NCBI GenBank assembly: GCA_000470535.1
Contig: CBRG010000167.1
Coordinates: 1-64,000 of the forward strand
Length of the DNA stretch: 64,000 nucleotides
Direction of reading: 5' to 3'
Source of the DNA: Streptomyces sp. AW19M42
GTDB lineage: Bacteria > Actinomycetota > Actinomycetes > Streptomycetales > Streptomycetaceae
Of this stretch, positions 12,278 through 62,792 are shown in pieces. The first letter of the stretch is position 1. Each line of letters starts with the position of its first letter. The notes under the pieces are model-generated. The model saw nothing but the letters and a program-made list of their open reading frames with translations, searched no databases and had not been told where the DNA came from. Position numbers and translations under genes: made by a program.

Positions 12278-12314
12278 ATATCCAACAACGCAGGGCAAGA
12301 CTAAGGCTGTTGGA

Positions 12315-12344
12315 TTGAGTGGCGGCCGCAGCTAAACTGATAAT
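12315..12344 (+). promoter_or_regulatory. Candidate promoter of the WXG100 operon
   Basis: TTGAGT (12315-12320), an 18-base spacer and GATAAT (12339-12344) match a housekeeping promoter. The region is the most AT-rich part of the 146-base gap between mycP and the first WXG100 gene, leaving a leader of about 75 bases. A second TTGACA at 12344 lacks a matching -10 box. Confidence 0.4.
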
Positions 12345-12423
12345 TGACAACTTTGGTCCGATGTACGCGCGGTAGCGAGAGACAAGCAGCCCGCGACATC
12401 CGATTCATGGGGGAAGGTGCTCT

Positions 12424-12774: not shown

Positions 12775-12827
12775 CAACCCGCCCTCGCAGTCCGTCCTCA
12801 CTTCGCCTCGCATCAGGAGACCGTTCC

Positions 12828-13109: not shown

Positions 13110-13220
13110 CCCAAGCTCAGATGAATCACGACGGAACCGGCACGATGTGGATGTGGGATGCGGCCGACGCATCCCACATCCACGCCTGCGGTTCCGCGGC
13201 ACTTTAGGGGAGGTGCTTCC

Positions 13221-13685: not shown

Positions 13686-13717
13686 CACGTAGAAGCGAAC
13701 GGGGGACAGGGATAACC

Positions 13718-15304: not shown

Positions 15305-15357
15305 AGCCGGTTCCGAAGCAGCGACGCCGGACGGCGGACAGAGAACGAGTGGGTGGC

Positions 15358-16617
15358 ATGAGGTCAACGGTCAGGCATCACCGCAGGCGAGCGTCGGCGG
15401 TGGTGTCCGCGCTGGGTTCCCTGTTCCTCCTCGGTGGCGCCATCGCCCCGGCCGCGTCCGCGGACACCATGCGCGACCGCGAGTGGTACCTGGACCGGAT
15501 GCAGGCCGCAGAGATGTGGAAGGTCAGCACCGGTAAAGGGATCACTGTCGCCGTTCTCGATACCGGTGTGATTCCTTCTGTTTCCGAACTGACAGGAGGA
15601 AAGGTCCTCCCAGGGAAGAACTTCGTCGATCCGAAACTGGGTGCGCACATCGACGTGGAAGGGCACGGCACCGCCATGGCGATGCTCATCGCTGGGAACG
15701 GTGTGAATGGTCAGGGCGTGAAGGGCCTCGCGCCGGATGCGCGCATCCTCCCCCTGACCGTTTTCGGATCCACCAAGGAATCGGTCACTAATAGCGTTCC
15801 GGCTGTCATCGCCGCCATCCGATATGCCGCCGACAGCGAAGCCAGAATCATCAACATGTCGTTGGGCTTCGAGGACTTCGCCCTCGAGGGGGGCGAGAAG
15901 GGCCAGATCCAAGAGGCAGTGGATTACGCCGTGGGGCGTGGGAAGCTGCTTCTGGCAGCGACTGGCAACAGGGGCGACAAGGACAACGGCGTCTCCTACC
16001 CGTCGGGAAACCTCGGCGTCGCCGGCATCGGGGCCGTCGACAAGACATCCTCGGTCACGAAGTTCTCGGTGTCAGGGCCTCAGGTGGCGCTCGCTGCCCC
16101 GGGCGAGGAAATCCCGATCCTCTGTGGCGGCGGTGAGGCGGGCTACTGCAGCAGCTGGGGCACCAGCCAGGCAACCGCCATCGCCTCCGCCTCCGCCGCC
16201 CTGATCTGGTCCAAGCACCCGTCCTGGACCGGCAATCAGGTCCTCCGCGTCCTGATGAACACAGCGGGCAAGCCGACCAAGGGCAAGGTCCCCAGCCGCT
16301 ACATCGGCTACGGCACGGTCCGCCCCCGGCTGGCCGTCCTCGGGGACCCCGGTGACCCGGGCCCCGCCGACGTGAACCCGCTGGTGGCCGCCCAGACCCC
16401 GAAGAAGTCCGCGTCGCCCTCGGCGTCTGCGTCGAAGGCCGGCGGTTCCGGCTCCTCGAACGCTTCGAAGCAGCCCGCGTCATCCGCCGCCTCCGAGAAG
16501 TCGGATGACGGCAAGGGTGTAGGCGCGATCGTCTGGATCATCGTCGGAGTCGGTGTGGTGGTCGTTGTCGGCGCGGTGCTCCTGCTGCGCCGTAGAGCCG
16601 CTGGTACCCGGCGCTGA
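15358..16617 (+). CDS. Second mycosin-like S8 protease with C-terminal anchor
   Basis: A 419-residue subtilisin-like protease (three residues longer if the GTG at 15349 is used). It has an Arg/His-rich signal peptide ending near AASADT, then a catalytic domain with Asp in AVLDTGV (about residue 67), His in EGHGTAMAM (about 102) and Ser in WGTSQATAIA (about 268). A Ser/Ala/Lys linker, one membrane helix and RRRAAGTRR close it. This is the mycosin plan, so it should be anchored outside the membrane. The catalytic-Ser block differs from the first mycosin (GTSQAT against GTSFSAP), so it is a diverged paralogue. It opens the second substrate cassette of the locus. Confidence 0.88.
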   Translation: MRSTVRHHRRRASAVVSALGSLFLLGGAIAPAASADTMRDREWYLDRMQAAEMWKVSTGKGITVAVLDTGVIPSVSELTGGKVLPGKNFVDPKLGAHIDVEGHGTAMAMLIAGNGVNGQGVKGLAPDARILPLTVFGSTKESVTNSVPAVIAAIRYAADSEARIINMSLGFEDFALEGGEKGQIQEAVDYAVGRGKLLLAATGNRGDKDNGVSYPSGNLGVAGIGAVDKTSSVTKFSVSGPQVALAAPGEEIPILCGGGEAGYCSSWGTSQATAIASASAALIWSKHPSWTGNQVLRVLMNTAGKPTKGKVPSRYIGYGTVRPRLAVLGDPGDPGPADVNPLVAAQTPKKSASPSASASKAGGSGSSNASKQPASSAASEKSDDGKGVGAIVWIIVGVGVVVVVGAVLLLRRRAAGTRR

Positions 16618-16688
16618 CCGTGCCATCGTGCACCACCCACCCCATCATTCCAACGCACCTGTACGCCCACAGGCCAGGAGGAGGCATT

Positions 16689-17444
16689 GTGAACGACGAA
16701 TTCATAGAAGGCCTGCGGCAGTTCCAGCAGCAAGCCCTCAACCTGCAGAGCATGATGACGGACATGCAGCAGCGGATGCCCCAGGGCGTCGAAGGGACGG
16801 ACGCCCAGGGTGCCGTGACCGTACGGCTGGCGACGGACGGGCTTCCGGAATTCATCAGGGCCGCATCGGACTGGCAGCGCAGGCAGGAACCCGAGGCTAT
16901 CGGTGCCGCCGTCGGTGATGCTTACGGAGTGGCCATGAGTCAGCAGATGACGGCATGGGCCCAGGCTTTCGAGGACTCCGACTGGCAGGGCAAGGCAGAC
17001 CGACTGGACAGCCAGTTCGCTCAACCGGAGGCCTCGGCTGCTCCCGCAGCACAGCCCGACATCCCCGAACGGGACCTGCGCTATGTCGTCTCCCGCCCCC
17101 TCGACGAACTGGCCGAGGATGTCCTTTCGGCCTTCGACGTGGTGGACCGGATGGACGAGACGGCGTCCGAGCCGGCCGAGGTTGAGGGAACGTCCGCCGG
17201 CCGCCATGTGACCCTCGTGGTGACCAAGGGCGCTCTGCGCTCCTGCGAGGTAGATCGGCAATGGGCGGCCGGACAGTCGTACATCGCACTGAACCAGGCT
17301 TTCGAAGAGGCCCTCGGAGATGCCAGGGGCAAGCTGAACAGCGCTGAGGCTGCCGGCGCGGACGCCATTGCGGGCCTGCAGGTGGACAGCTTGCTTGATG
17401 AGGCGCTGGCCATACTCCGAAATCCGCAACGTTTCATTGACTGA
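16689..17444 (+). CDS. Protein with two YbaB/EbfC-like segments
   Basis: From the GTG at 16689, behind a strong AGGAGGAGG box, the product is 251 residues. It begins with a helix like that of YbaB family proteins, then a strand-helix unit (AVTVRLATDGLPEFIRAASDW) and, after a Pro/Ala linker, a second one (VTLVVTKGALRSCEVDRQWA) followed by a long helix. Each unit resembles the YbaB/EbfC fold, the same fold as mycobacterial EspB-neighbour proteins sometimes annotated as DNA-binding. Here, between a mycosin and an EspC-like gene, a role in substrate handling is more likely than DNA binding. The fold call is by eye. Confidence 0.6.
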   Translation: MNDEFIEGLRQFQQQALNLQSMMTDMQQRMPQGVEGTDAQGAVTVRLATDGLPEFIRAASDWQRRQEPEAIGAAVGDAYGVAMSQQMTAWAQAFEDSDWQGKADRLDSQFAQPEASAAPAAQPDIPERDLRYVVSRPLDELAEDVLSAFDVVDRMDETASEPAEVEGTSAGRHVTLVVTKGALRSCEVDRQWAAGQSYIALNQAFEEALGDARGKLNSAEAAGADAIAGLQVDSLLDEALAILRNPQRFID

Positions 17445-17464
17445 GTTTCGAAAGGTAGGTCGAA

Positions 17465-17764
17465 ATGGCAGATCTGAAGCACATCACCGACGCGCTGCGG
17501 ACCGAAGCGGGTATGTGGGACAAACAGAGCGCTTCCATGGGGGAGGTGTCCCGCGCGGCTGACGGAATGAGGCTCACACGCCTTGAGGCCGGACTGTTCC
17601 AACTCGTTGTCACCAACTACAACGACGCCATCGATCACATCTCGGCCCGATGCTCCGAGGGAGAAAGCCGCATGGCGGAGGTCGCAGATGCATTGATCAA
17701 GAACGCGAACGCCTACGACAATCACGAGGCGGAAACCACCAAATCCGTCGAAGACGCCTACTGA
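17465..17764 (+). CDS. EspC-like type VII secretion target
   Basis: A 99-residue helical hairpin protein. It looks like the EspC family (about 100 residues, start near LRTEAGMWD, central turn, long second helix). It has no WXG motif but carries YDNHE near the C terminus, matching the YxxxD/E export signal. Together with the preceding gene (20-base gap) and the next one (15-base gap) it forms an operon, and is probably the exported partner of the 17780-18517 product. Confidence 0.75.
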   Translation: MADLKHITDALRTEAGMWDKQSASMGEVSRAADGMRLTRLEAGLFQLVVTNYNDAIDHISARCSEGESRMAEVADALIKNANAYDNHEAETTKSVEDAY

Positions 17765-17779
17765 TAAGAGGAGTTTGCA

Positions 17780-18517
17780 ATGGCGTTCAATGTGGCTCAA
17801 ACGCAGGAGACAACAGAGAAGTTGAACTCCGGCGTTACGAAGATGTCGGCCAAGTTGGATCTCATCGGCCCGGCCGTCGAAAAGGCGATGAACCACTGGT
17901 ACATTCCGGATGCCATCGCCAAGCCGGTGATCTGGGCTGCAAACAAGTTGATAGAGCTCGGATGCTGGATCCGGGACAAGGTCATCGAATGCCTCAAGGG
18001 CGTTGCCGCGCCAGTGATGTTCTTCTTGGACGCGCAGGATTGGCAAGGGTCGTCGATCCGGGGGAAGGCCTCGGGCGTTGCCGGGAACGTTGCGGGGGAA
18101 GCGCTCAAGGCGCCCCTCAGTTGGACGGGCGAAGGCGCCACAGCGTACGTCGGGGCCGTGAAGGGGCAGCCCACCGCAGCCACTCAGATTGAGACGACCT
18201 CCGATAAACTTGCCACGGCGTTGACGGTTTGTGCAGTGGCCGGAGCGGCATTCTATCTGGCGCTGCTGGCCGTTCTGATCAAGGCCATCGTTGTTATGGT
18301 CGCCGCAGCCGCTGCCGCGGCCACCGGCGTAGGGGCGCCGGTGGGTTTTGGGGCTGCCGTAGTTGAAGCGCTGTCGGATGCCGGCATCATCACTGGACTT
18401 GTGGTAACGCTGGTGGGGGTGCTCACAGCGCAGGCTACTCAAATGGCCGTTATCAAGGGTGAAGCAAACGACAGCAGCGCCTTCCCGGGAGGCAAGTGGC
18501 CGTCCGCGACTGTTTGA
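17780..18517 (+). CDS. Possible type VII substrate with hydrophobic hairpin
   Basis: A 245-residue protein from the ATG at 17780 (AGAGGAG box). The first 145 residues are amphipathic helices with a W-x-G-like turn in LSWTGEGATAY. Residues about 150-225 hold two strongly hydrophobic, Ala/Val-rich helices (AAFYLALLAVLIKAIVVMVA and a later Val/Leu stretch) that could insert in a membrane. The layout resembles ESX substrates that put membrane segments after a helical export domain. I recognise no named domain. The upstream EspC-like gene is the likely export partner. Confidence 0.65.
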   Translation: MAFNVAQTQETTEKLNSGVTKMSAKLDLIGPAVEKAMNHWYIPDAIAKPVIWAANKLIELGCWIRDKVIECLKGVAAPVMFFLDAQDWQGSSIRGKASGVAGNVAGEALKAPLSWTGEGATAYVGAVKGQPTAATQIETTSDKLATALTVCAVAGAAFYLALLAVLIKAIVVMVAAAAAAATGVGAPVGFGAAVVEALSDAGIITGLVVTLVGVLTAQATQMAVIKGEANDSSAFPGGKWPSATV

Positions 18518-18613
18518 TGCAGGTGCGGCGCTGCCGAATTGATTCTGCCGGCTCGGCAGTGCGTGACGACGCCGGAAAGGCAGGATCTTCTGAATGACGG
18601 GTGATGGTTTCGC

Positions 18614-18949
18614 ATGTACTGGATTCGAGTACCGCTTTGGTGTGCCTCCCTGGCCTGCTTCTATGTGCTGTTCGCTGTTCGGCCTCATAGTCTGCCGCTG
18701 ACGATTCTTCTCTACGCCCTGTTCGTTCTCCTTCCGGGCTGTGCCGAGGGATACGCGCAGCGGCGGCGCCAGAAGGACTGGTACGGACAGTACGGGTCCA
18801 CCGACGCATTGCGATCGATCGTGACGGACGAGGCGGAACTTCGCCGGATCCGTGACGAAAAGGGGTTGCTGGTGGCTGCCCGCCGATTCAGGCGCCAATT
18901 TCCTCGGTGCCCCTTGCCCGAAGCCCTGAAGCTGGTTCAGTCGCTGTGA
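18614..18949 (+). CDS. Small membrane protein
   Basis: A 111-residue protein with two membrane helices in the first 42 residues and a charged C-terminal half (QRRRQKDWYGQYG, then a Glu/Arg-rich helix). It lies 96 bases after the putative substrate gene and may be the last gene of that operon. The ATG at 18614 gives a good membrane start, though its ribosome site is weak. No family is recognised. Confidence 0.55.
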   Translation: MYWIRVPLWCASLACFYVLFAVRPHSLPLTILLYALFVLLPGCAEGYAQRRRQKDWYGQYGSTDALRSIVTDEAELRRIRDEKGLLVAARRFRRQFPRCPLPEALKLVQSL

Positions 18950-19276
18950 CCGCTCCCCGCCCTGCCCCGCGGCCGCCGAGGTCGGAGCAGGCATCCATGA
19001 GTCCGTGCTAGCCGCTGAGGTCTATGCGACTGGCCGCAAGCGGCGCGAAACGAGGAAGAGTCTTTCCAGAAGTTCGGATCGGTCGACGAACTGAGGCAGG
19101 CCGTCGATCGGCCGGGTCCCCGGCGTATGCGTGGCGTGAGCCCGCGAACCGTGAGTTCGTCCCCGGGGTGGCCCTGTTCTCGGGCAGCCGTTGCTGGGTG
19201 ACGTCCGACAGCGCTTCGCAGTAGGTGAGTTGCGCGCCGCGCGCTGGGTGTCAGGGATCCAACGAAGGAGAGCGTC
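18950..19276. other. Gene-free stretch of 327 bases
   Basis: Short open frames on both strands have poor codon bias and no ribosome site. I see only the leader of the next gene, with GAAGGAGAG 5 bases before the ATG at 19277. Confidence 0.5.
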
Positions 19277-19879
19277 ATGGCCACACCGTTCAGGGATGTC
19301 GCCGAAGGGCTGTTTCTCCCCGCCGAGCGGGCACGGCGGGGCTGGTTCTACGTCGGCTTGGTTCTCGCCGGGATGCTCTGTCTGATTCTCCTGGAAGTGC
19401 TGACGGCCTTTGTGGTCGCCTTGCTGATGGGGGATGACGCCATGGAAACGGTGGGCTTGCTGGGAATCTTCGGGTATGCGGCCATACCGGGGTTCGCGGC
19501 AGTGGTGACCGTGCCGTTGTTGATCGTGCTTGTGAGCCGGCATCCGGGACTGCGCATCGATTCGGCAGGTGTGAGCAAAGTGTGGAGTGATCACAGTCAG
19601 ACCGTCCCGTGGGCCGCTATCGACAAGGTCCGGTTCAATAGCAGGCGGAGCTACCTGCTACTGGTGCCGAAGCCGGGCGTGTACCCGGGGGTGCCGAATG
19701 GCGTTGTCGGGGAGCGGGTGATTCTGATCCACTCACTCGGGCACGCCCTCTGGAGCCGCCGGAGGCCGACTCACCCCGACTTGATCGTTGACGCGGTCGA
19801 GCGGTTCGCCCCCGGAAGGTTCACCGAGCTCTGGAACCCGGGCAAGGGCCGCGCGAACGGTGCGGGCACCCCGGCGTAG
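19277..19879 (+). CDS. Membrane protein with PH-like domain
   Basis: A 200-residue protein with two membrane helices (about residues 23-50 and 62-87) followed by a soluble domain of about 100 residues whose strand pattern (LRIDSAGVSKVW, VPWAAIDKVRF, RVILIHSLG) resembles bacterial PH domains. Such proteins sit at the inner membrane with unknown roles. The ATG at 19277 has a GGAGAG ribosome site. It may belong to the secretion locus or be an unrelated neighbour. Confidence 0.65.
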   Translation: MATPFRDVAEGLFLPAERARRGWFYVGLVLAGMLCLILLEVLTAFVVALLMGDDAMETVGLLGIFGYAAIPGFAAVVTVPLLIVLVSRHPGLRIDSAGVSKVWSDHSQTVPWAAIDKVRFNSRRSYLLLVPKPGVYPGVPNGVVGERVILIHSLGHALWSRRRPTHPDLIVDAVERFAPGRFTELWNPGKGRANGAGTPA

Positions 19880-19912
19880 CCGAGATGAGCGCAGTCCGGG
19901 GCACTCTCCTTT

Positions 19913-19928
19913 TGGACTTGCAGGTCCA
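19913..19928. promoter_or_regulatory. Near-perfect palindrome upstream of the SDR relic
   Basis: TGGACTTGCAGGTCCA is a 16-bp palindrome with one mismatched pair, 120 bases before the SDR start. Size and symmetry fit a TetR-family operator, and a TetR gene (20861-21475) lies just beyond the SDR. The link is inferred. Confidence 0.4.
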
Positions 19929-20048
19929 TTTTTCTCGTCGCACAGTGGCAGAGCGCCCCGACAGCCAGAGGGCGCCCCGTCCGGTCGAACGCTGCGGGCG
20001 GTCCGGCCGTGCGGTTTCGCAGCGGCGAACCAAGCAATGGAGAGAACC

Positions 20049-52047: not shown

Positions 52048-52110
52048 CGGCCTCGGACGAGAGGTCCGAGGCCGATCAGAACCCCGGCCTGGGGGCGAAC
52101 CCCAGGCCGG
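52048..52110 (-). terminator. Tandem hairpins left of the truncated tRNA copy
   Basis: Two perfect 11-bp stems, 52048-52058/52064-52074 and 52084-52094/52100-52110, each with a 5-nt loop. They lie where the tRNA-Arg transcript would end if the tRNA at this site were whole, and are similar to the pair at 62641-62700. They are probably the host's original tRNA terminators. Confidence 0.7.
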
Positions 52111-52121
52111 AGTGGTAACGC

Positions 52122-52167
52122 GTTGTGCCCCCGGCAGGATTCGAACCTGCGACACCCGCTTTAGGAG
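52122..52167. repeat. Left attachment-site copy (3' half of tRNA-Arg)
   Basis: These 46 bases are identical to 62716-62761. On the reverse strand they read from the first base of the tRNA-Arg(CCU) anticodon loop through the 3' end of the gene and three bases on. The 5' half of a tRNA is missing here, so this is not a functional tRNA. Confidence 0.9.
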
Positions 52168-52463
52168 TGGGGTCGAGTCCGTGATCGAGAGTTACGAGTC
52201 GTGCCGTGTGGTGCTGTTCTTGCTGATCAGCGCCACACGGCGTGGTGCTCTGTCCGGTGTTGGGTGGCCCGTCCAGGGCAGTGCGCTCACGCACCGCTCA
52301 CGCATGTCTCTGATGGTCATGTGTGCTGTCGAGCAGGTCGGCGGCACTCACCATCCTCGTGGGGGCGTCCGATGCTGATAGGCGATTCTGTGGACCGGGA
52401 CCTGCCGGGGATTTCTCCCCCTTTCAAGTGTTACGACTGCGGCTTTGACCGTGGTTGCAGGTC
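52168..52463. other. Left end of the island, no gene
   Basis: This 296-base stretch has an inverted repeat with a 13-bp stem and one mismatch (52204-52216 with 52228-52240). It may be a terminator or an arm of the attachment site. Reading frames here are short and without domains. No trace of an integrase was recognised. Counted from the aldehyde dehydrogenase stop, the gene-free span is 51909-52463. Confidence 0.45.
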
Positions 52464-55400
52464 TCAACTTTGATGCTGGTGTTCCCCCTTGCCGGCCTGG
52501 TTCATCCAGTAGGCGATGTTCTTGCTGATGGTGGGGATGATGGGATCAGCAGGATCCACTTGGCGTCGTGTTTCTGTAAGCATCCGAGTGAGGATGCGGA
52601 CGGCTTCCCCAGTGTGACCAGCGCGTCCGCGCCACATGGCGAGATTGTCCAGCACCGACAGGGTGGCGCCATGATCAGTGCCGAATCGCTGTTCGATGCG
52701 GGTCAGCAGGGTCTGGTAGGTGTCCCCTGCCGACTGTGCGTGTCCTGTTGCACCCTGCCAGCTGGCAAGGCTATCGAGGGTTGTCAGGGTTTGGAGGTGG
52801 TCCGGGCCTAGGACACGTTCCTGATCGGGGAGGAGCTCTTGCAGTGCAGCGATGGCTGCCTGGGGTGCTCCTGCAGAGCCCTGCATGACGGCGAGGCTGT
52901 AGCGGGTGCTGAGAGTGTCTGCCTCTTCTGGCGTGGAGCGGCGCTGCTGCTCACGGAGTACATCCTCCAGTGCATGCACAGCCCTCTGGGGTTCTCCTGC
53001 CCAGCCCAAACACAGGGCGTGGCTGTGCCGGGAGCTGAGTGTTTCGGGATGGTGAGGACCGAGCACTCGGATTCTGTCAGCGATGACGGCGGTGAGGTCC
53101 TCAGCTGCGATGGCCGGATCAATTCTTGCCCGCAAACGAGCGAGGTTGTGGCGCGCGGCAAGTAGCTCAGGATGGTCGGGCCCCAGGATCTCACCCATAT
53201 CGGGGATCAGTGCCTGATACCCGTCGATGGCTTTATCCGTCTCGCCCGCTTCTCCTTGCCAACGGGCAAGACTTTGCCGCGTGGTCAGCGCGCGCAGGTG
53301 CCGGGGCCCGAGCGCTCGTGTCTGGTCGACTAGCAGCCCTTCGAGCAGGCTGATGGCTTCGGCAGGATTGCCTGATTCGCCCAGCAAGCGGGCCAGGTTA
53401 TGGCGGGCCGTCAGCGTGCCCTCGGCATCGGCACCAAACTCCTCTTCCATGAGGGGGATCAGGTTGCGGTACGCGTCAGCAGCCTCGACTGCGTCACCCG
53501 CGACGCCCTTCCAGTAACAAAGGTTATGGAGAGTAGCGAGAATCGCACCACGGCTCGCTCCGTTGCGTTGCCGGACAGCCAGAACCTCTTGGAGGGCTGC
53601 GATGGCGCCGCTTGTGTCGCCCAGTGCACCACGCTCGACGGAAAGGTTGTGACGAGTCACGAGTGTCTCGGGGGCCTCGTAGCCGAACAGCCGGATGTGA
53701 TCCGCTTCAAGGCTCTCCAAGGTCTGAACTGCTGCAGCGTGATCTCCGGCTTGGCTTTGCCAGCGGGACAACTCGCTTCGGGCGACGAGGGTGTGTTGGT
53801 GGTCGGCTCCAAGACGCTGGTGGGCTAGGGAGCAAAGCCCGACGAAATGGACTTTCGCCCAGGAAGCATCGCCCGATTCGCCCGCGCTCGTGCCCAGTCG
53901 GAACAGAAGGGTGTAGGCGGTGTCGTTCTGCCAGAGAGGGTGGCTCTCCCCGTCCTGATCATGTGTGGCCAGCACGCGGGCGCTAGCGCGCAGCCGCAGA
54001 GTGTGGTCCTGGTTATGACCGGTGTCGGGCCAGATGTTGAGCAGGGCGTGAGCAGCCGCGGGCAGAACGGCGTCCCTGCGATCCGTCCGGACGTCGGGCG
54101 GTGAACCAGGAGGCTGCCGTTCGCGTACGGCCCGCTGGATGAGCTGGTGCATGCGGACCAACCATGCGTCATTGTCGCTCTCGTCTGGGATGTGATCAAT
54201 GAGGTGGAGCCGGTCCAGTGTTGCCAGGGTGTGCTCAGCATCAAGCTCGTCGACGGGACCGTCTGCTTGGCTCCGCTCGGTCAGCCAATCGCGTGCAGCG
54301 TCGCTGGTGAACAGCGCGGCGGGAATGCCGGTAGTCCCGTCGAGGACGGCGGCCAACTCGAGCATTGGCCGGGCAAGCAAGCCGGTGTGTCGGTCGGCCT
54401 GATTGACTGAGATGTCCCACAGCGATGCAAGTGAGCCTGTCGTGGCGCTACCGCGCATGGCTGGGGTCAGTCGTTCGAGGGTAAGCCGGCGGTCCGCGAG
54501 CCGGCGTCGGTAGCGGGCGATACTGCACGATGCGTCGTAGTCGAGGTACGCGGCAGCACGCGAAAGTGCCAGGGGGAGATGGCCGAGGTCATCGGCGAGC
54601 CCCGCTAGCTCCACGTCCGTACCGGATGGCATGGTTCGTTGCAGTGTGCTGCGCAGGTGCTTGAGGGATTCCTCGGGGGTGAAGACGCCAACAGGTAGAA
54701 AGGCTAGACCACTTGCCGTGGCGAAGTCCCTCTCGCGGCTACGAGTGGTGACGATGACCCTGCCGCGACCGGCTGTGTGCCGAGGCGCCCACAGCCCCTC
54801 CAGCGCGCCGGGAGAGTGCACGTCGTCGAGGACGACGAGCCAGCTGCGATCCGTTACACGGAGCCAGTTGAGGAAACGCTCAGCGGCCGAAGCAGTGTTC
54901 TCATTGCTGGACACCAGATCAAGATCGCGGGCTGCCTGTGCATAGGCACTGGTCACTGCAGGAGCGGTGTTCGCCGTGACCCATATCAGTACGTCGACTC
55001 CAGCGTCTGTTCCGTCGGCGGCGGCGCGGTGGCAGTAGTCGGCGGCCAGACAGGTTTTACCCACGCCTCCGGTGCCCGTGATCACCCGCCCTCTGACCAT
55101 TGCACCACCCCTCTCCGTGGCGACGTCTCTGTCTTCGGAGCCGTCCAGGGCGTTCGCCAGGGCTTCACGGTGTGCCCGTTCGATGAGTACATCGGCTGTG
55201 TTGGGGACCAGACCTATGCGCAGTGGCCTTGCGCTACGGGGCTTGCCGCCACAATGTTTCTGCGTGCGCGCCCCCGACGCCTCACCCTCGCGGTGAGCTG
55301 GGGGTCTGTTGCGCTCGGCTGCTTGGCGCAGACTCTCCCACCGAGCACGGGAGCGGGGATCTGGCCTTGAACTGTTGTAGCTATCGAGGAGTTCGGTCAG

Positions 55401-55595
55401 GAAGGTGAATGCCCTTCCGGTCCGCGGCACACTCTGACCGCTGAACCACGCGCTGAGAGTGCTCTTGTTCAGGGAGACGGGCGGAGATTGCCGCCTGCTG
55501 TGCTGGATGATCTGGCCGAACGTGAGACTGGAAGCTTGCCGACGTGCTCTCAGCTCCTCGGCCAGACGCGACGTTACTGCCGGATTATCAACCAT
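52464..55595 (-). CDS. STAND NTPase (NB-ARC type) with TPR repeats
   Basis: A 1043-residue protein from the ATG at 55595. Residues 1-80 are HTH-like helices (SSLTFGQIIQHSRRQ, LNKSTLSAWFSG). The NB-ARC NTPase has P-loop GTGGVGKTCLA (about 172), Walker B LVVLDDVHSPG (about 251) and sensor TTRSRE, followed by winged-helix regions. From about residue 565 there are about ten kinesin-light-chain-like TPRs with the LGPDHPETL motif. STAND proteins assemble when the repeats sense a trigger; known ones are regulators or phage-sensing defence proteins. No toxic effector domain is seen, so output may be DNA binding by the N terminus. Codon GC is lower than in flanking genes, which fits transfer. Confidence 0.88.
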   Translation of the reverse strand: MVDNPAVTSRLAEELRARRQASSLTFGQIIQHSRRQSPPVSLNKSTLSAWFSGQSVPRTGRAFTFLTELLDSYNSSRPDPRSRARWESLRQAAERNRPPAHREGEASGARTQKHCGGKPRSARPLRIGLVPNTADVLIERAHREALANALDGSEDRDVATERGGAMVRGRVITGTGGVGKTCLAADYCHRAAADGTDAGVDVLIWVTANTAPAVTSAYAQAARDLDLVSSNENTASAAERFLNWLRVTDRSWLVVLDDVHSPGALEGLWAPRHTAGRGRVIVTTRSRERDFATASGLAFLPVGVFTPEESLKHLRSTLQRTMPSGTDVELAGLADDLGHLPLALSRAAAYLDYDASCSIARYRRRLADRRLTLERLTPAMRGSATTGSLASLWDISVNQADRHTGLLARPMLELAAVLDGTTGIPAALFTSDAARDWLTERSQADGPVDELDAEHTLATLDRLHLIDHIPDESDNDAWLVRMHQLIQRAVRERQPPGSPPDVRTDRRDAVLPAAAHALLNIWPDTGHNQDHTLRLRASARVLATHDQDGESHPLWQNDTAYTLLFRLGTSAGESGDASWAKVHFVGLCSLAHQRLGADHQHTLVARSELSRWQSQAGDHAAAVQTLESLEADHIRLFGYEAPETLVTRHNLSVERGALGDTSGAIAALQEVLAVRQRNGASRGAILATLHNLCYWKGVAGDAVEAADAYRNLIPLMEEEFGADAEGTLTARHNLARLLGESGNPAEAISLLEGLLVDQTRALGPRHLRALTTRQSLARWQGEAGETDKAIDGYQALIPDMGEILGPDHPELLAARHNLARLRARIDPAIAAEDLTAVIADRIRVLGPHHPETLSSRHSHALCLGWAGEPQRAVHALEDVLREQQRRSTPEEADTLSTRYSLAVMQGSAGAPQAAIAALQELLPDQERVLGPDHLQTLTTLDSLASWQGATGHAQSAGDTYQTLLTRIEQRFGTDHGATLSVLDNLAMWRGRAGHTGEAVRILTRMLTETRRQVDPADPIIPTISKNIAYWMNQAGKGEHQHQS

Positions 55596-55763
55596 GCCGT
55601 TCCCCGTTCGTTCCGAACCTTCTACGAACCCTATTTCTTGTCTGTCTGACCACGGCATACCTGCAGTTCGGCGGCAGTCGTTTCTCGCCGAACCCCGTGC
55701 CGAACGGATCTGGTGGCGTCTGACCGGTCACTTGGTCGGTCAAGTCCACGGATGGAACAAGTT

Positions 55764-57663: not shown

Positions 57664-57993
57664 GTGACGACGACCGGCCACGACCCCCGCAGCTGCACGA
57701 CCCCGCCCTCGGCGGGCGACGAGACAACGCAGAATCCGGCGCCCCAGGAGGCGGCCGGACGTGACTCCCGACAGACGACTCCGATCGTCTGCGGCCTCGC
57801 ACTCCTGGACAAGGACCCCCGCTACGACCGACGGACCGGGCACGCGGCCCTGCCGATCGAGGTCCGCTTCCTCGACGGCACGAAGACCACCGCGACGCTT
57901 GATATGGACCCGGGCAGGGTCCTCCTGCTGAGCGCCCAGCTGGAGCGAGCAGTCGCCCTGCGCGCGAAGGCCCAGGAAGCAGCGGCCACGTGA
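57664..57993 (+). CDS. Small hypothetical protein, first gene of the island operon
   Basis: From the GTG at 57664 (GAGGAA box) it encodes 109 residues. The first 40 are Thr/Pro/Ser-rich and look disordered. The rest reads as three strands and a helix (LPIEVRFLDGTKTTATLDM, then VLLLSAQLERAVALRAKAQ). No domain is recognised. Its stop overlaps the start of the next gene (GTGA). Confidence 0.65.
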   Translation: MTTTGHDPRSCTTPPSAGDETTQNPAPQEAAGRDSRQTTPIVCGLALLDKDPRYDRRTGHAALPIEVRFLDGTKTTATLDMDPGRVLLLSAQLERAVALRAKAQEAAAT

Positions 57994-58109
57994 CGCGGCC
58001 CGCGTTATCCGATCCGCTCGGAACTGCCCTGGCCTGGGTGTGGGTGCTCGGGACAGCCGCAGGACTCGCCATGATCGGCACGCTCGCCGAAGGCGAGTCC
58101 TGCGGCTGA
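57990..58109 (+). CDS. 39-residue membrane peptide with a TTA codon
   Basis: The GTG at 57990 overlaps the preceding stop, so translation is coupled. The peptide starts MTRPALSDP and has one hydrophobic helix (TALAWVWVLGTAAGLAMIG), ending GESCG. Codon 6 is TTA (58005-58007), read only by the bldA tRNA in Streptomyces, so it should be made mainly late in development. No function is known. The coupling makes it more likely to be real than its size suggests. Confidence 0.5.
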   Translation: MTRPALSDPLGTALAWVWVLGTAAGLAMIGTLAEGESCG

Positions 58110-58233
58110 TCAGAACTTCCTGTCACACCCCTCGCTCAACCTCGCCGACCCGGGCTTGGACGACGCGGCCGGATAGAACCACGCGGTCCCGCCATGCCCT
58201 CCCTGCTCTGCACCACCCTGCGAAGGGAAGCCG

Positions 58234-60141
58234 ATGATCAGCCAGCACAGCAGCGATATGCAGCCCCTCCCCGTGTCGGTCGCGTTCAGCGGTCCCGACA
58301 ACACCGGCAAGACCAAACAGATCGGAATCCTGGCTCGCCGCATGGGCTCTGCAGCCACCTCGGCAGGTCCCGTCGACCACTACGACCGGCGCTGGGCGGC
58401 CATCAAGGCCGACGGCATGGGCCGCTGGTGGTTCGAGGCGGGGCCGGCCGAGGAGGTCGCCGATGTCCTCGCCCATTCCTACCTGGAGCGCTCCCGGCAT
58501 CCGTACTCCGCGCCCGTACGGTTTCTGGACCGCGGGATTCCGATGCTGGAGGCATCCGTCGCGGCCACCGTCGCCGTACGGGAGGACCTGGATGCCTGGC
58601 GGGCCGCCGACCGTGCTCGATCCCTCCTGGCGCCGTACGAGTCCGATCTCCGGGCAGCCGAACGAGACGAACGCGCCCTCCTGCTCCTGCACTGTGATGG
58701 CGCCGAGGAAGGTACCCGCCGCAGCCTCTCCCACGAGGCCACTGTCACGGACATCTACGCGGCCTACCAGCGCCACCTCCACACGCAGATCAACCGACTC
58801 GTCGGGGACGGCCGCTTCGCCATGCTGATCCGCATCGGTGACCGACCGACCGTCACCATCCAGGACGAGGTCCGCCGGCACCTGGCGCCCCTGCATCCCG
58901 CCATTCCCAGCCGAGCGCTGGCAGACGTGCATGTCATCGCCCTCGGCGGAATGTCAGAGAGTGGGAAGAGCACGGTCGGCGAGTACTTGCGAACTCACCA
59001 CGGGCACGCCCGCCTCAAGATCGGTTACCTGATCGAGGACGCCGCCGACCGGGCGGGCATTGCGGACCCGTACCGAGTGGCCCCGGTCGTCCAGGCCGAA
59101 CTGATCGTGGACGGCCTCGATCGGTACTGCGAGGCCCACCACTTCATTGACTGCGTCAGCGTCGAGTCGCTCCACGATTTCGATTCGGCGGTCGAGCTCG
59201 CCAAAATGCTCGGACCTCAGCTCACCATCACCTACCTGGACACCTCCGCAGCCGTTCGCGCGCAGCGTGGGACTGCGGGTGCACAAGACGTGGCAGACCG
59301 GGACCGCGTCAAGAGCGCCAGGGGTGCCGACAAGATCGCCTCCATCGCCCAGGAGGTCATCAGCAACGACGGGCCGCGCCTGACGCTGGAACGCCGTCTG
59401 GACCACCTGGTCCTGGCCCGCCGATGGCCCGAGCACCAGCCGAGCACCATGCCGGTCAACGCCCTGGGCCTGCCGGTGCACCTGGAGTCCTACCTCTCCA
59501 CACTCCTCGACCGCCTGACCGGACCGCAGCCCCTGATCGACCTTCTGGCCGTAACCGGCAGCGGGGCCCGGGGCAAGTACCAGCACGGCTGGAGCGACCT
59601 TGACGTGTTCGTCGTTGCCGACGCCGAGTCCCTGGACGGGATGCGCCGCGTCCTGGCAGATCTGGAAGCCGAACTCGGCGGAGTCAAGCTCGGCCTGACC
59701 GTGCTGGCCCGTGCCGAGTGCCTGGCCGGAGCCGTCACCTCCAGACTCCTGCACATCCTTGCGCTCATCGGCAGCGGCAGCCTCGTCCCCCTGTGGTGTG
59801 CTCCGGGGCTGGCTCTGCCCGCCCCGGACGCGGCCACCGACGTTGACGTGAGCCTGCGTGACGGGATCCAGGCTGCCGTCGAGATCCGGCGCCAGCTCCT
59901 CAAGGGGGCGCCCGACCTCCGCGACCTCTACAAGGTCACCGCACTTCTGGCGAAGATCCAGCTGCGGTTCAGCGGGATCGAGTGCCCCTCCGACAGCAAC
60001 GCCCTGCAGACCCTTGTAGAGGCGGATTGCCCGGACACGAGCATGGTCGCGGCGGCCCGCACCGAGCGGTCTGCCGCAGAGGATCTGGCGCTGGTCGTCC
60101 TGCGCAGCTGGCTGGCCACCCTCCCCGGAGAAGCGGGGTGA
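58234..60141 (+). CDS. Kinase-kinase-nucleotidyltransferase fusion protein
   Basis: A 635-residue protein with three catalytic-looking domains. Residues 1-225: a nucleoside-monophosphate-kinase-like fold with P-loop FSGPDNTGKTKQIG, close to thymidylate kinase. Residues 232-400: a second P-loop kinase with LGGMSESGKSTVGEYL, resembling dephospho-CoA or adenylate kinases. Residues 415-635: a polymerase-beta-type nucleotidyltransferase with TGSGARGKYQHGWSDLDVFVV (metal Asp pair in SDLDVF). Key motifs look intact in all three. It could phosphorylate a small molecule and attach a nucleotide to it or to a partner. I know of no named family with this order. The ATG at 58234 has a GAAGG box. Its stop overlaps the next start (GTGA). 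Confidence 0.85.
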   Translation: MISQHSSDMQPLPVSVAFSGPDNTGKTKQIGILARRMGSAATSAGPVDHYDRRWAAIKADGMGRWWFEAGPAEEVADVLAHSYLERSRHPYSAPVRFLDRGIPMLEASVAATVAVREDLDAWRAADRARSLLAPYESDLRAAERDERALLLLHCDGAEEGTRRSLSHEATVTDIYAAYQRHLHTQINRLVGDGRFAMLIRIGDRPTVTIQDEVRRHLAPLHPAIPSRALADVHVIALGGMSESGKSTVGEYLRTHHGHARLKIGYLIEDAADRAGIADPYRVAPVVQAELIVDGLDRYCEAHHFIDCVSVESLHDFDSAVELAKMLGPQLTITYLDTSAAVRAQRGTAGAQDVADRDRVKSARGADKIASIAQEVISNDGPRLTLERRLDHLVLARRWPEHQPSTMPVNALGLPVHLESYLSTLLDRLTGPQPLIDLLAVTGSGARGKYQHGWSDLDVFVVADAESLDGMRRVLADLEAELGGVKLGLTVLARAECLAGAVTSRLLHILALIGSGSLVPLWCAPGLALPAPDAATDVDVSLRDGIQAAVEIRRQLLKGAPDLRDLYKVTALLAKIQLRFSGIECPSDSNALQTLVEADCPDTSMVAAARTERSAAEDLALVVLRSWLATLPGEAG

Positions 60142-61256
60142 GCGCGAGTGGCGGGCCGAGGGCCTCGACCGCGGTCACCTTCCACAAGGAAGTCGCGACC
60201 CGGGAGTCTGCCGAAGCTGAAGTACGGGGCTGGTCGCAGCTCGCCTCCCGGATCCGGGTCCCGGCCCTGCGGGGGCATCCGGCATTGCCGGGCCGCCATC
60301 TACTGGCGTACGAGGATGTCTTCGCGAGCGGACGGTGCGAGCTGCTGCTCGGCGATGTGATCGCCTTGGCTGATCGCGATCCGGAGGTGCTGCCGCGCTT
60401 AGCCCGACTCATGGACGGCGTCTGCCACGACCTGCGGGCGGCGGCCGACGAGACGGGAAAGGTGGTTCCGCTCGCCGAGTGCGTGCCGGACCTTTACCTA
60501 GATCGGATCCGACCCGGCGGTCGACTCGACCGCTGGTACACGCGACGGGACCTGCCGATCAGCCTGCCCCATTCCGACGTCACCCTCACCGTCCAGGAGC
60601 TGGCCGGCTACACAGTTACCGTCAACGGCCAACCGCTCACGTTGAACGTTGCCGCATCCATCGACCGTGTCCGCCATGTCTTGCGCCCCGACCGGCACTG
60701 GCCCACAGGGCTGACGCAGGGCGATCCCACGGAGCCCAACATCGCCGACCCGCTGTGCTGGCTCGACTTCGAGTTCGCCGGCCGCAACACCATCGCGGGC
60801 GAAGCCGCGAACCTGCTCTGGTACCTCGTGGCCCTGGGCGGCTGGCTCGTCCCCCGTTACCAGCCCGACGTGTACGTGCACACCCTTCGCCTGGCCCTGC
60901 CCTCCCACACCAGCCCTCGCATCGATCACCTGGAACTGCACGCCGCTATACGGCACATCGACATCCGGTACAGCTGGAATACCGGCGCCGGCCGCCACGC
61001 CGCCATCGCGGGAGCACTGCACGGCCTCTGCGGCCATGGCGGCCTCGGTGTGGATGAACTCCGCGCCTTCCTAGCCCTGCGCATCCTCGGCGTCATCCCG
61101 CCAACTCGGCTGACCGGCCACGACCTGCTGCTCGTCCTGGTCAAGCTCGCCGAGAGCCAGCACCCCGGTACTGACCTGGGCGCCTTCCTCACCACCGCAC
61201 CGGCTCTTCATTCCGACCCCGCCGAACGGAGCCGCAATGTCCCTGCCCCTGCTTGA
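60138..61256 (+). CDS. APH-like small-molecule kinase
   Basis: A 372-residue protein whose GTG overlaps the stop of the fusion gene. The catalytic loop reads TQGDPTEPNIADPLCWLDFEFAG (about 192-215): Asp and Asn are kept, Gln stands where APH enzymes have His, and DFE takes the place of DFG/DxD. This is the phosphotransferase (choline-kinase-like) fold. Codon 88 is TTA (60399-60401), a second bldA-dependent codon in this operon. Substrate unknown. It overlaps the SDR gene by 20 bases. Confidence 0.8.
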   Translation: MSASGGPRASTAVTFHKEVATRESAEAEVRGWSQLASRIRVPALRGHPALPGRHLLAYEDVFASGRCELLLGDVIALADRDPEVLPRLARLMDGVCHDLRAAADETGKVVPLAECVPDLYLDRIRPGGRLDRWYTRRDLPISLPHSDVTLTVQELAGYTVTVNGQPLTLNVAASIDRVRHVLRPDRHWPTGLTQGDPTEPNIADPLCWLDFEFAGRNTIAGEAANLLWYLVALGGWLVPRYQPDVYVHTLRLALPSHTSPRIDHLELHAAIRHIDIRYSWNTGAGRHAAIAGALHGLCGHGGLGVDELRAFLALRILGVIPPTRLTGHDLLLVLVKLAESQHPGTDLGAFLTTAPALHSDPAERSRNVPAPA

Positions 61257-62028
61257 GACCCATCTTCAGGCCCGGCCGCTGCAAGGCCGGACGGCCCTCG
61301 TCACCGGCGGGGCCACCGGCATCGGTGCCGAGATCGGCCGCGCACTCTCCATGTCAGGAGCGACCGTGGCCATCAACCACCTCGGTCAGGAAAGGGAGGC
61401 GCAGGCACTTCTCGCCGCCTTCGACCGCGGCGGAAGTCCTGGCGTGGCCGTGGACGCCGACCTGACCGACCCTGACGCGGTCCAGACGATGACCGATCGG
61501 ATCCGTGCAGAGGCCGGCCCGATCGACATCCTCGTGAACAACGCCGGGGCCTACCCACGTGTCCCGTGGCAGGACACCGACGAGGCTGCCTGGAACTACT
61601 CCCTCGACGTGAACCTCACCGCGCACTACCGCGCCTGCCACGCGGTGACCCCCGGCATGGTCGAACGGCGCTGGGGCCGCATCGTGAACATCAGCAGCAT
61701 CAACGCTCGCGCCGGCCGGACCAACCTCGCCGCGTACAGCACCGCGAAGGCCGGACTCCTGGGCCTCACTCGATCCCTTGCTCGTGAACTGGGCCCGTGC
61801 GGAGTCTGCGTCAACACGGTCCTGCCCGGCGCCATCCAGGTCGAGGCCGAGACCGCGATCCCCGCCCGCCATCGCGCCAGCCCGGAGGACCAGATAAAGC
61901 GCCAGTGTGTTCCCCGCCGGGGGCGGCCCGAAGATGTGGCGGCGCTCGTGGCGTTCCTCGCCGGGCCCTCCGCATCGTTCATCACTGGGCAATCAGTCCA
62001 TGTCGATGGCGGCTGGCTGATGCACTGA
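61237..62028 (+). CDS. SDR-family oxidoreductase
   Basis: A 263-residue classical SDR: TGGATGIGAEIG cofactor loop, NNAGAYP, catalytic Ser in NISSINARAG, YSTAKAGLLGL with Tyr and Lys, and PGAIQVEAET. FabG/gluconate-dehydrogenase-like. It starts inside the end of the kinase gene (ATG at 61237, GGAG box), so the two are translated together. In the operon it would oxidise or reduce the same small molecule. Its intact C terminus ITGQSVHVDGGWLMH contrasts with the frameshifted SDR at 20049. Confidence 0.9.
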   Translation: MSLPLLETHLQARPLQGRTALVTGGATGIGAEIGRALSMSGATVAINHLGQEREAQALLAAFDRGGSPGVAVDADLTDPDAVQTMTDRIRAEAGPIDILVNNAGAYPRVPWQDTDEAAWNYSLDVNLTAHYRACHAVTPGMVERRWGRIVNISSINARAGRTNLAAYSTAKAGLLGLTRSLARELGPCGVCVNTVLPGAIQVEAETAIPARHRASPEDQIKRQCVPRRGRPEDVAALVAFLAGPSASFITGQSVHVDGGWLMH

Positions 62029-62058
62029 GGCCGTCAACAAGCAAGGAGACAGAGCCGA

Positions 62059-62496
62059 ATGATCGAACGAGTCCGAGCCGTCCTCGTGACCGAGAAGGAC
62101 ACGATGCTGGTCATCCGCCGCACCAAGCCCGGAGCTCCCGTGTACTGGGTGCTTCCCGGCGGAGGCGTCGAAGCCGACGACGAGTCCCGGGAGGCCGCCC
62201 TTCACCGGGAGATCTACGAGGAGGTCGCAGGGAAGGCCGACATCGTCCGTCTTCTGCACACGATGGAGTCCGACGACGAGCGTCAGCTCTTCTACCTCAC
62301 CCGCATTGCGACCTGGTCCTTCGACGACCGAACTGGGTCCGAGTTCAGTGCCGAGGGGCGGGGCGATTACGCACTGGAGGAAGTCCCACTGACCGTGGAG
62401 GGGATCGACGGAATCGCTCTCAAACCCGAGGAAATCGCCCACGTTCTCCGAGGTGCCCTCCGTGACGGTTCTCTCTCAGATGTTGCTACAGCCTGA
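62059..62496 (+). CDS. NUDIX hydrolase
   Basis: A 145-residue NUDIX protein with the full box: GGGVEADDESREAALHRE followed by IYEEVAG, i.e. G-x5-E-x7-REUxEExGU. NUDIX enzymes cut nucleoside diphosphates linked to another group. As the last gene of the operon, 30 bases after the SDR, it may remove a wrong or surplus nucleotide-linked product or release the final one. ATG at 62059 has AAGGAG. Confidence 0.9.
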   Translation: MIERVRAVLVTEKDTMLVIRRTKPGAPVYWVLPGGGVEADDESREAALHREIYEEVAGKADIVRLLHTMESDDERQLFYLTRIATWSFDDRTGSEFSAEGRGDYALEEVPLTVEGIDGIALKPEEIAHVLRGALRDGSLSDVATA

Positions 62497-62640: not shown

Positions 62641-62700
62641 CGGCCCCGGACGCGAAGTCCGAGGCCGAGTAAAGCGCCTCCCTGGGGGCGAAACCCCAGG
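62641..62700 (-). terminator. Tandem hairpins after tRNA-Arg
   Basis: Two stems, 62641-62651/62657-62667 (11 bp, one mismatch) and 62681-62687/62694-62700 (7 bp), follow the 3' end of the leftward tRNA. They resemble the pair at 52048-52110 but differ in sequence, so this copy probably came with the island. They may also stop the rightward operon. Confidence 0.65.
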
Positions 62701-62715
62701 TCGGCGGCTTATTGT

Positions 62716-62761
62716 GTTGTGCCCCCGGCAGGATTCGAACCTGCGACACCCGCTTTAGGAG
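62716..62761. repeat. Right attachment-site copy inside tRNA-Arg
   Basis: Identical to 52122-52167 over 46 bp. Identity begins at the first base of the anticodon loop and ends three bases past the discriminator. The tRNA stays complete because the element supplies the 3' half. Confidence 0.9.
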
Positions 62762-62792
62762 AGCGGTGCTCTATCCCCTGAGCTACGGAGGC
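62720..62792 (-). tRNA. tRNA-Arg (anticodon CCU)
   Basis: Seventy-three bases fold as a cloverleaf: acceptor GCCTCCG pairs with CGGGGGC (one G-U pair), D-arm AGCTCAGGGGATAGAGC, anticodon stem CCGCT/AGCGG with loop CTCCTAA, T-arm GCAGGTTCGAATCCTGC, discriminator A. CCA is not encoded. It decodes AGG. It is the integration target of the island to its left. Confidence 0.95.

What the first reader, a model, noticed from the sequence alone, without database searches (positions are those of the whole stretch)
57664..62496. Possible undescribed metabolic or defence operon: two kinases plus nucleotidyltransferase, APH-like kinase, SDR, NUDIX
Seen: six genes on one strand with three start/stop overlaps (GTGA twice, and a 20-base overlap), so tight co-translation. 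Known: the domains phosphorylate small molecules, attach nucleotides, oxidise/reduce, and cut nucleotide-linked groups. Inferred: together they could build and recycle a nucleotide-activated small molecule (for example a modified nucleoside or sugar signal). The cargo of an integrated island, next to a STAND protein, adds a defence possibility. I know of no named system with this set.
Basis: partly seen in the sequence, partly recalled or inferred. Interest (0 to 1): 0.8.

Follow-up and report, generated by a model that had tools for sequence, protein, structure and literature searches.

The report
Mobile nucleotide-chemistry cassette with orphan hydrolase
Four linked genes in soil bacteria form an undescribed travelling cassette that probably builds a nucleotide-like small molecule, and strains that lost the building genes often still keep the hydrolase gene, which suggests that this enzyme acts as an antidote.

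Summary
Four form the conserved unit: a kinase-kinase-nucleotidyltransferase fusion (FUS), an APH-fold kinase, an SDR and a NUDIX hydrolase. I count 47 distinct loci in two fixed layouts: type A (window; 33 loci, 4 genes) and type B (14 loci, 8 genes, adding DUF4254, phosphoribosyltransferase, GT9 and, in 13, a histidine phosphatase). A relaxase- or integrase-like gene lies nearby in 12 of 28 contexts. The window copy sits in a 10.6-kb island bounded by an exact 42-bp repeat of a tRNA-Arg end.

The surprise is asymmetric decay. Of 394 Streptomycetaceae genomes, 33 carry the NUDIX gene without FUS; 15 of these loci still hold cassette stubs. None of the 47 loci lacks NUDIX; two decayed loci do. 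The pattern looks like an orphan immunity gene.

Best reading: the cassette makes a nucleotide-linked metabolite that the NUDIX enzyme hydrolyses for self-protection. Synteny and decay are shown; chemistry and toxicity are inferred. The STAND neighbour is not part of the unit. My searches found no named system.

The parts
52126..52167 (.). distal copy of a 42-bp tRNA-Arg 3'-end repeat (att-like left border of the island)
   Evidence: exact match to 62720-62761; longer 84% repeat 52091-52173 / 62685-62767
62720..62761 (.). proximal copy of the repeat, inside tRNA-Arg(CCT) (att-like right border)
62719..62792 (-). tRNA-Arg (anticodon CCT), presumed integration target
   Evidence: Rfam tRNA 67.2 bits
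56170..57489 (-). divergent NsdA-family TPR-type regulator, probable regulator of the cassette
   Evidence: NF053720 305 bits against cut-off 75; a match on the opposite strand beside 31 of 33 type A loci, at 90% identity or more in 18 (window included) and only 21-31% in 13
57664..57993 (+). 109-aa protein of unknown function; found in 4 loci only, doubtful part
57990..58109 (+). small hydrophobic protein (by eye), 39 aa, frameshifted relative to the 61-aa form in relatives
   Evidence: in 15 of 33 type A loci
58234..60141 (+). FUS: thymidylate-kinase-fold domain (58234-58917), AAA_18-type P-loop domain (58918-59463), nucleotidyltransferase domain (59464-60138); domain borders approximate
   Evidence: AAA_18 E 1.9e-5 (25.6 bits, below its cut-off 29.4) and NTP_transf_2 21.1 bits against 21; model pLDDT 82.9; first domain Z 17.8, rmsd 2.6, 184 aligned to S. 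aureus TMK 4hlc_A; P-loops GxDNxGKT and SESGKST and the GS...SDLD motif invariant in 20 sequences
60138..61256 (+). APH-fold small-molecule kinase, 372 aa
   Evidence: model pLDDT 77.3; Z 13.8, rmsd 4.5, 259 aligned to methylthioribose kinase 2pui_A; QGDPTEPN and LDFE invariant in 19 sequences; no Pfam hit at E<=0.01
61237..62028 (+). short-chain dehydrogenase/reductase
   Evidence: PF13561 196 bits; NF009466 FabG-type subfamily 230.6 bits against 222
62059..62496 (+). NUDIX hydrolase, proposed antidote
   Evidence: PF00293 50.1 bits; RExxEE core in 76 of 77 related genes
52464..55658 (-). STAND/TPR protein of the same island, not part of the cassette
   Evidence: NF040586 FxSxx_TPR 332 bits against 300; no match in 35 cassette loci

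Best explanation
A mobile producer/antidote cassette. Inferred steps: the APH-fold kinase phosphorylates a small hydroxylated acceptor; the two P-loop kinases of FUS phosphorylate the acceptor or a nucleotide further; the nucleotidyltransferase domain joins a nucleotide to it; the SDR oxidises or reduces it; the result is a nucleotide-linked metabolite that burdens or inhibits cells, or that signals. The NUDIX enzyme cleaves that linkage and so protects the maker and any cell that keeps the gene. The divergent regulator controls the unit. Shown: gene set, order, two layouts, mobile context, purifying selection, repeated loss of the synthetic genes with retention of NUDIX. Not shown: any substrate, product, toxicity or protection.
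For: Gene order fixed in 33 type A and 14 type B distinct loci, NUDIX in 47 of 47 (these loci were found through FUS). In 394 genomes (three searches with the same size and handles): FUS in 31, NUDIX in 56, APH in 37; NUDIX without FUS 33, NUDIX without FUS and APH 27; FUS without a type A NUDIX 8, each type B with its own NUDIX. In 15 of 33 orphan loci, stubs of SDR, APH, NT or regulator lie beside NUDIX, and a second NUDIX locus of G781 is a relic too (L275). SDR matches in the stubs begin at different residues (for example 125, 152, 184, 196, 203, 213, 232, 242). On the NUDIX tree (77 rows) the label 'full cassette' needs 21 changes, at least 10 forced by well-supported branches; the 21 relic rows need 15, at least 11 forced. 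Orphans are under purifying selection (10 orphans, 45 pairs, dN/dS median 0.28, highest 0.57), and 32 of 33 genomic orphans keep the RExxEE core. In 32 related type A loci, FUS and NUDIX pass a coarse intactness test in 32, SDR in 29, APH in 27. In type B NUDIX is the first gene, yet G668 keeps an intact NUDIX followed by a kinase stub, and plasmid NBC_01724 keeps NUDIX alone; G668 and G687 have no FUS match at E<=0.001.
Against: No chemistry or phenotype was tested. Two loci go the other way: G820 has an APH fragment without NUDIX, and G867 has a decayed type B cassette with complete APH and no NUDIX there. Type B orphans are few (3), and the NUDIX of one, G687, lacks its start. 18 of 33 orphan loci show no adjacent stub at E<=1e-4, so some NUDIX genes may never have belonged to a cassette. 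One orphan NUDIX (L230) is broken. The tree rests on 145 columns with 28 of 74 inner branches unresolved, and the genes move between genomes, so counts of change are rough; the relic label is also somewhat clustered (as low in 6 of 500 shuffles). NUDIX genes are common AICE cargo for other reasons (PMC3218068, passages), and a related NUDIX gene is core in the family (144 of 150 genomes), so retention may reflect another use. No transporter was seen among the conserved genes.
Confidence: 0.42

Rival explanations
1. Plain biosynthetic cassette for a nucleoside-type metabolite or signal in which NUDIX is a tailoring enzyme, as TubG removes phosphate at the end of tubercidin synthesis; orphan NUDIX genes are neutral leftovers or were recruited elsewhere.
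For: TubE/TubG/TubH show the same enzyme classes as type B: phosphoribosyltransferase, Nudix, kinase (PMC6112128, passages). Type B adds PRTase, GT9 and a CobC-like phosphatase.
Against: A tailoring enzyme has no use without its pathway, yet orphans keep the active-site core and stay under purifying selection. Upstream genes without NUDIX are rare (2 loci, against 33 genomes with the reverse).
Confidence: 0.2
2. The NUDIX gene is an element-borne conjugal immunity factor like Pif of pSAM2, useful alone, and the other three genes are metabolic cargo or make the signal that it removes.
For: Pif is a NUDIX-domain protein that acts in the recipient against redundant transfer, and AICEs often carry NUDIX genes (PMC3218068, passages). 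Relaxase- or integrase-like genes lie near 12 of 28 cassettes, and orphan NUDIX genes lie on plasmids.
Against: Fixed linkage and parallel divergence with the synthetic genes in two layouts suggest a shared function. No comparison with Pif was possible: the record is not held.
Confidence: 0.17
3. Anti-phage or anti-plasmid defence by an altered nucleotide, with NUDIX limiting self-damage.
For: Mobile, patchy cargo (31 of 394 genomes) with a divergent regulator; no match of FUS, APH or NUDIX in phage records and no relative of FUS or NUDIX among viral contigs, so it does not look like a phage gene set.
Against: No credible PADLOC match: NUDIX to PDC-S07 at 38.6 bits over 75 residues, FUS only at E about 0.002. 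I noticed no conserved defence neighbour; the STAND gene had no match in 35 loci.
Confidence: 0.1
4. Resistance or catabolic cassette: APH-like and nucleotidyltransferase domains modify an antibiotic or sugar from outside.
For: APH fold shared with aminoglycoside kinases and methylthioribose kinase; NTP_transf_2-type nucleotidyltransferase.
Against: Five linked catalytic domains plus an oxidoreductase are more than modification needs; NUDIX alone would not be the gene kept.
Confidence: 0.08

Closest known systems
Tubercidin cluster tubA-I (PMC6112128, passages)
   Same: Nucleoside chemistry with a phosphoribosyltransferase (TubE), a Nudix hydrolase (TubG) and a small-molecule kinase (TubH); type B shares these classes
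   Different: No 7-deazapurine gene was seen in the cassette (not searched for by profile); type A has no PRTase; no MFS exporter seen; the gene table of tub shown in the passages lists no FUS-like, GT9 or DUF4254 protein
xre-nud-mdp gene cluster and Pif of actinobacterial AICEs (PMC3218068, passages)
   Same: Element-borne NUDIX gene with an XRE-type regulator; Pif gives conjugal immunity
   Different: No HD hydrolase (mdp) among the window genes scanned; FUS, APH and SDR are not named in that cluster; relation to Pif untested
Ter-linked nucleoside-like metabolite pathway (Anantharaman 2012; seen only as a reference, content recalled)
   Same: Predicted nucleoside-like product; the type B PRTase reaches PRTase_2 at 33.7 bits against 28.8; that this Pfam family stems from the Ter work is recalled
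   Different: No Ter gene was noticed (not searched); PRTase absent in type A
Thymidylate/deoxynucleoside kinases (FUS N-terminal domain)
   Same: Fold: Z 17.8, rmsd 2.6, 184 aligned to 4hlc_A
   Different: Fused to a second kinase domain and a nucleotidyltransferase; DRG where TMK has DRY/H (recalled motif); substrate unknown
Methylthioribose kinase / PsiK / maltokinase / APH kinases
   Same: Fold: Z 13.8 to 2pui_A and 8zic; about 11-12 to APHs
   Different: No Pfam match at E<=0.01; QGD in place of the usual HGD (recalled motif)

Membership tests
Tubercidin-type nucleoside cluster | Phosphoribosyltransferase | tested here: not met
   No Pfam or NCBIfam PRTase among the 7 window proteins scanned and no match of the type B PRTase at E<=1e-4 anywhere in the window; present in type B
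Tubercidin-type nucleoside cluster | Nudix hydrolase | tested here: met
   PF00293 50.1 bits
Tubercidin-type nucleoside cluster | Deazapurine genes (GTP cyclohydrolase, CPH4 synthase, UbiD decarboxylase) | not tested
   No profile search for these was run; none appeared among the cassette genes scanned
Actinomycete integrative (AICE-type) island | Direct repeats from a tRNA 3' end at both borders | tested here: met
   exact 42-bp repeat
Actinomycete integrative (AICE-type) island | Own integrase | tested here: inconclusive
   One integrase query from a related locus has no match in the window; Pfam was run on only two of the non-cassette genes
Actinomycete integrative (AICE-type) island | Transfer gene (TraB or relaxase) | tested here: inconclusive
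   One relaxase query (PF03432) has no match in the window; TraB was not searched
Known anti-phage defence system | PADLOC model match of the proteins | tested here: inconclusive
   7 proteins scanned; NUDIX to PDC-S07 38.6 bits over residues 2-76, FUS to PDC-M05A and Csx3 at E about 0.002; no system call possible
APH-superfamily kinase | Fold and catalytic Asp loop | tested here: met
   Z 13.8 over 259 residues; QGDPTEPN and LDFE invariant in 19 sequences
APH-superfamily kinase | Pfam family match by sequence | tested here: not met
   0 families at E<=0.01 (the 424-aa frame that contains the 372-aa protein was scanned)
Pif-type conjugal immunity protein | Sequence relation to Pif and block of redundant transfer | not testable with these tools
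   pSAM2 record not held under the accession tried
Producer/immunity system | Immunity gene retained without the producer genes in several lineages | tested here: met
   33 of 394 genomes with NUDIX and no FUS, 15 of those loci with stubs; the full-cassette label needs 21 changes on the tree, at least 10 forced
Producer/immunity system | Product harmful to cells lacking the immunity gene | not testable with these tools
   needs the bench

The most novel reading that the evidence does not exclude
A mobile, nucleotide-based toxin/antidote (or privileged-signal) cassette of Streptomycetaceae: a kinase-kinase-nucleotidyltransferase fusion with APH-fold kinase and SDR makes a nucleotide-linked compound, and a NUDIX hydrolase is its antidote, shared as an orphan immunity gene by non-producers. 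It exists in a 4-gene and an 8-gene chemistry that keep the same six modules.
Probability: 0.33. Interest if true: 0.82.

Novelty: new variant of a known kind. Interest (0 to 1): 0.64.

Why it matters
It points to an unexplored family of natural products or signals with a ready-made self-protection enzyme, in a genus known for antibiotics. The orphan NUDIX pattern makes function testable with a few simple strains, offers a rule for spotting antidote genes by asymmetric decay, and may give NUDIX genes on actinobacterial mobile elements a purpose other than housecleaning.

Tried and rejected
STAND as a partner: rejected, no match in 35 cassette loci. Phage origin: no match for FUS, APH, NUDIX in 50,697 phage records; viral contigs gave no relatives of FUS or NUDIX. 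Wide spread in the phylum: of 396 genomes only the window's and G013 gave full-length matches; the other 18 were short and weak (E 4.9e-7 to 8.7e-4). Retention by 3' position: argued against by the few type B cases, where NUDIX is first. Contig ends as the cause of orphans: FUS was sought in whole genomes; L222 lies near a contig start and is the least certain relic. The strict Nudix pattern demanded the first Glu and matched only 17 of 45 orphan/relic and 16 of 32 full-cassette genes; the RExxEE core, used instead, is in 76 of 77 (these include the distant L168 and L232). Search with the left flank for an empty site: the answer was filled with matches to other members of a gene family and was not followed up. 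The intactness test is coarse (an open stretch of at least 85% passes, so the FUS of L046, interrupted after residue 547, and the broken SDR of L050 pass). A suspected second half of the APH-like gene on the Lactococcus plasmid was not borne out.

L039/L040 (stand-alone FUS paralogue) are not counted as cassettes. Loci L233-L235 (genomes with FUS fragments) are not among the 33. Of 14 plasmid records with NUDIX I fetched 9; 3 show SDR stubs and one APH plus an SDR-NUDIX fusion. Among the 33, second NUDIX matches of G824 and G865 were not fetched.

Paper searches aimed at this gene set: 0 papers each; 1 paper, PMC9513070, passages read; 1 paper, PMC9425974, listing only. Subscription papers are not in that library. 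PMC7159879 and PMC6105854 were seen in passages and gave nothing on this set.


Full report
OBSERVATION. The 635-aa first enzyme (FUS) is one fused protein: an N-terminal thymidylate-kinase fold (Z 17.8, rmsd 2.6, 184 aligned to 4hlc_A), a second P-loop domain (AAA_18, below its cut-off) and a nucleotidyltransferase domain (NTP_transf_2 21.1 bits against 21). Both P-loops and the GS...SDLD motif are invariant in 20 sequences. I saw no clear third carboxylate for the nucleotidyltransferase, so its activity is likely but not certain. The next protein has no Pfam match, but its model (pLDDT 77.3) has the APH-type kinase fold, closest to methylthioribose kinase and PsiK (Z 13.8), with QGDPTEPN and LDFE invariant in 19 sequences. 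SDR and NUDIX are ordinary by profile.

ISLAND. The genes lie in a 10.6-kb stretch bounded by an exact 42-bp repeat of the tRNA-Arg(CCT) 3' end (52126-52167 and 62720-62761). One integrase query and one relaxase query had no match in the window. In relatives, a relaxase-like gene lies near the cassette in 10 loci and an integrase-like gene in 6, together 12 of the 28 contexts examined (27 loci plus the window). These labels rest on sequence clusters; one or two members of each were checked by profile: two relaxases reach PF03432 at 34.6 and 38.7 bits against 24.6, and one integrase reaches Phage_int_SAM_3 at 27.7 against 22.6. Streptomyces colonosanans (L045) has its cassette about 3 kb from a tRNA-Arg(CCT) of the same kind. 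I take this as cargo of integrative or conjugative elements and their remnants; decay of such elements with direct repeats and cargo left behind is described in PMC9513070 (passages).

CONSERVED UNIT. The genome-contig scan gave 21 loci, all with FUS-APH-SDR-NUDIX in that order, some with broken genes. With loci from 248 related genomes and a draw of 394 Streptomycetaceae genomes, and after removing repeats, I count 47 distinct loci in two layouts. Type A (33, the window): an NsdA-type match on the opposite strand in 31 (90% identity or more in 18, only 21-31% in 13), then FUS, APH, SDR, NUDIX. Type B (14): NUDIX, separate thymidylate-kinase-like protein, DUF4254-kinase-nucleotidyltransferase fusion, phosphoribosyltransferase, GT9, APH, SDR, and a CobC-like histidine phosphatase in 13; a divergent HTH gene in 12. 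The same six modules recur whether fused or split. The four type A proteins diverge in parallel (r 0.955-0.971, over the 24 of 32 relatives with all four judged intact). dN/dS is 0.125-0.512 in 24 comparisons with six relatives. A Lactococcus plasmid (p275D) carries a distant fusion with a degenerate NUDIX-like start and the kinase-nucleotidyltransferase pair, followed by a gene related to the APH C-terminal part, between IS6 copies.

ASYMMETRIC DECAY. In plasmids the NUDIX query finds 14 records, FUS 4 and APH 2; of 9 NUDIX records fetched, 3 show SDR stubs before NUDIX. In 394 genomes (three searches of the same size and with the same handles, so apparently one draw), FUS matches 31 at E<=1e-10, APH 37 at E<=1e-10 and NUDIX 56 at E<=1e-25; the threshold is stricter for NUDIX, so the comparison leans against the result. 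33 genomes have NUDIX without FUS, 27 of them without APH too; the 8 genomes with FUS and no type A NUDIX are all type B with their own NUDIX. Around the 33 orphans, 15 loci keep pieces of SDR, APH, nucleotidyltransferase or regulator next to NUDIX; 18 show none at E<=1e-4. A second NUDIX locus in G781 is also a relic (L275). 32 of the 33 keep the RExxEE core; the exception, L230, is broken. Ten orphans compared pairwise give a median dN/dS of 0.28, highest 0.57 (45 pairs). On a NUDIX tree of 77 rows, the 33 full-cassette rows need 21 label changes, at least 10 forced by well-supported branches, and the 21 relic rows need 15, at least 11 forced, so loss of the synthetic genes happened many times; the tree is weak (145 columns, 28 of 74 inner branches open) and transfer between genomes blurs the count. 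The opposite state is rare: an APH fragment in G820 and one decayed type B cassette in G867 with a complete APH and no NUDIX. In type B, where NUDIX is the first gene, an intact NUDIX followed by a kinase stub (G668), a NUDIX without its start followed by a short stub (G687) and a solitary NUDIX on plasmid NBC_01724 were found; neither G668 nor G687 has a FUS match. This argues against mere position at the 3' end, on few cases.

MECHANISM. I read this as a producer/antidote unit. The enzyme classes allow phosphorylation of an acceptor, attachment of a nucleotide, and redox tailoring; a NUDIX enzyme hydrolyses nucleoside diphosphates linked to other groups, which is the linkage such a pathway could make (general knowledge of the families). 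Repeated retention of the hydrolase alone is what one expects of immunity to a product made by neighbours or left by an element. The step from retention to antidote is inference. The main rivals are a TubG-like tailoring role (PMC6112128, passages) and a Pif-like conjugal immunity role (PMC3218068, passages). A related core NUDIX gene occurs widely: 144 of 150 family genomes match the type B enzyme, mostly at about 50% identity; the window genome's copy is 36% identical to the window enzyme. So the cassette enzyme may have been recruited from a housekeeping family.

NOVELTY. No model of Pfam, NCBIfam, PHROGs or PADLOC names the unit, and five text searches of an open-licence library gave no description (one of the two papers listed was read in passages, the other seen as a listing only). 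Subscription papers and MIBiG were not available. Individual domains are known; the linked set, its two layouts and its decay pattern appear undescribed. I file it as a new variant of a known kind (mobile small-molecule cassettes with hydrolytic self-protection), since the kind itself rests on inference.

Noticed in passing
L039:8460-10298 and L040:8305-10140 (genomes G048, G036): A stand-alone FUS paralogue (about 43% identical) sits between the EF-Tu and ribosomal-protein genes; its second P-loop and DRG motif are lost while the nucleotidyltransferase motif stays, so it may be a re-purposed regulator.
   Followed up: partly
L066:8044-11702 (Lactococcus lactis plasmid p275D): A distant fusion (NUDIX-like start, kinase, nucleotidyltransferase) with a gene related to the APH C-terminal part and a hexapeptide acyltransferase, between IS6 elements: a possible Firmicute relative of the cassette.
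   Followed up: partly
window 52464-55658: A STAND/TPR protein scoring as an FxSxx-COOH system TPR protein lies inside the island; FxSxx partner genes were not searched for.
   Followed up: no
G000:C96:100333-100773 (L270:3807-4286): A NUDIX gene related to the cassette enzyme is present in 144 of 150 Streptomycetaceae genomes searched; its function might hint at the cassette's substrate.
   Followed up: partly
L044:8120-9910 and the 13 other type B loci: DUF4254, a domain of unknown function, is fused to the kinase-nucleotidyltransferase and in these 14 loci comes with a GT9 gene, which links this domain to nucleotide-sugar chemistry.
   Followed up: partly
L090:10074-11330 (plasmid of Streptomyces sp. 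NBC_01001): SDR and NUDIX are fused into one frame downstream of APH, with only a tail of FUS left.
   Followed up: partly
L048:20210-21715: The integrase-like gene near this cassette also holds a LacI-type DNA-binding domain (55 bits against 27), an unusual combination.
   Followed up: no
window 10000-20000: Lower G+C in parts (0.63-0.70) and a changed AT skew suggest another acquired segment; not examined.
   Followed up: no
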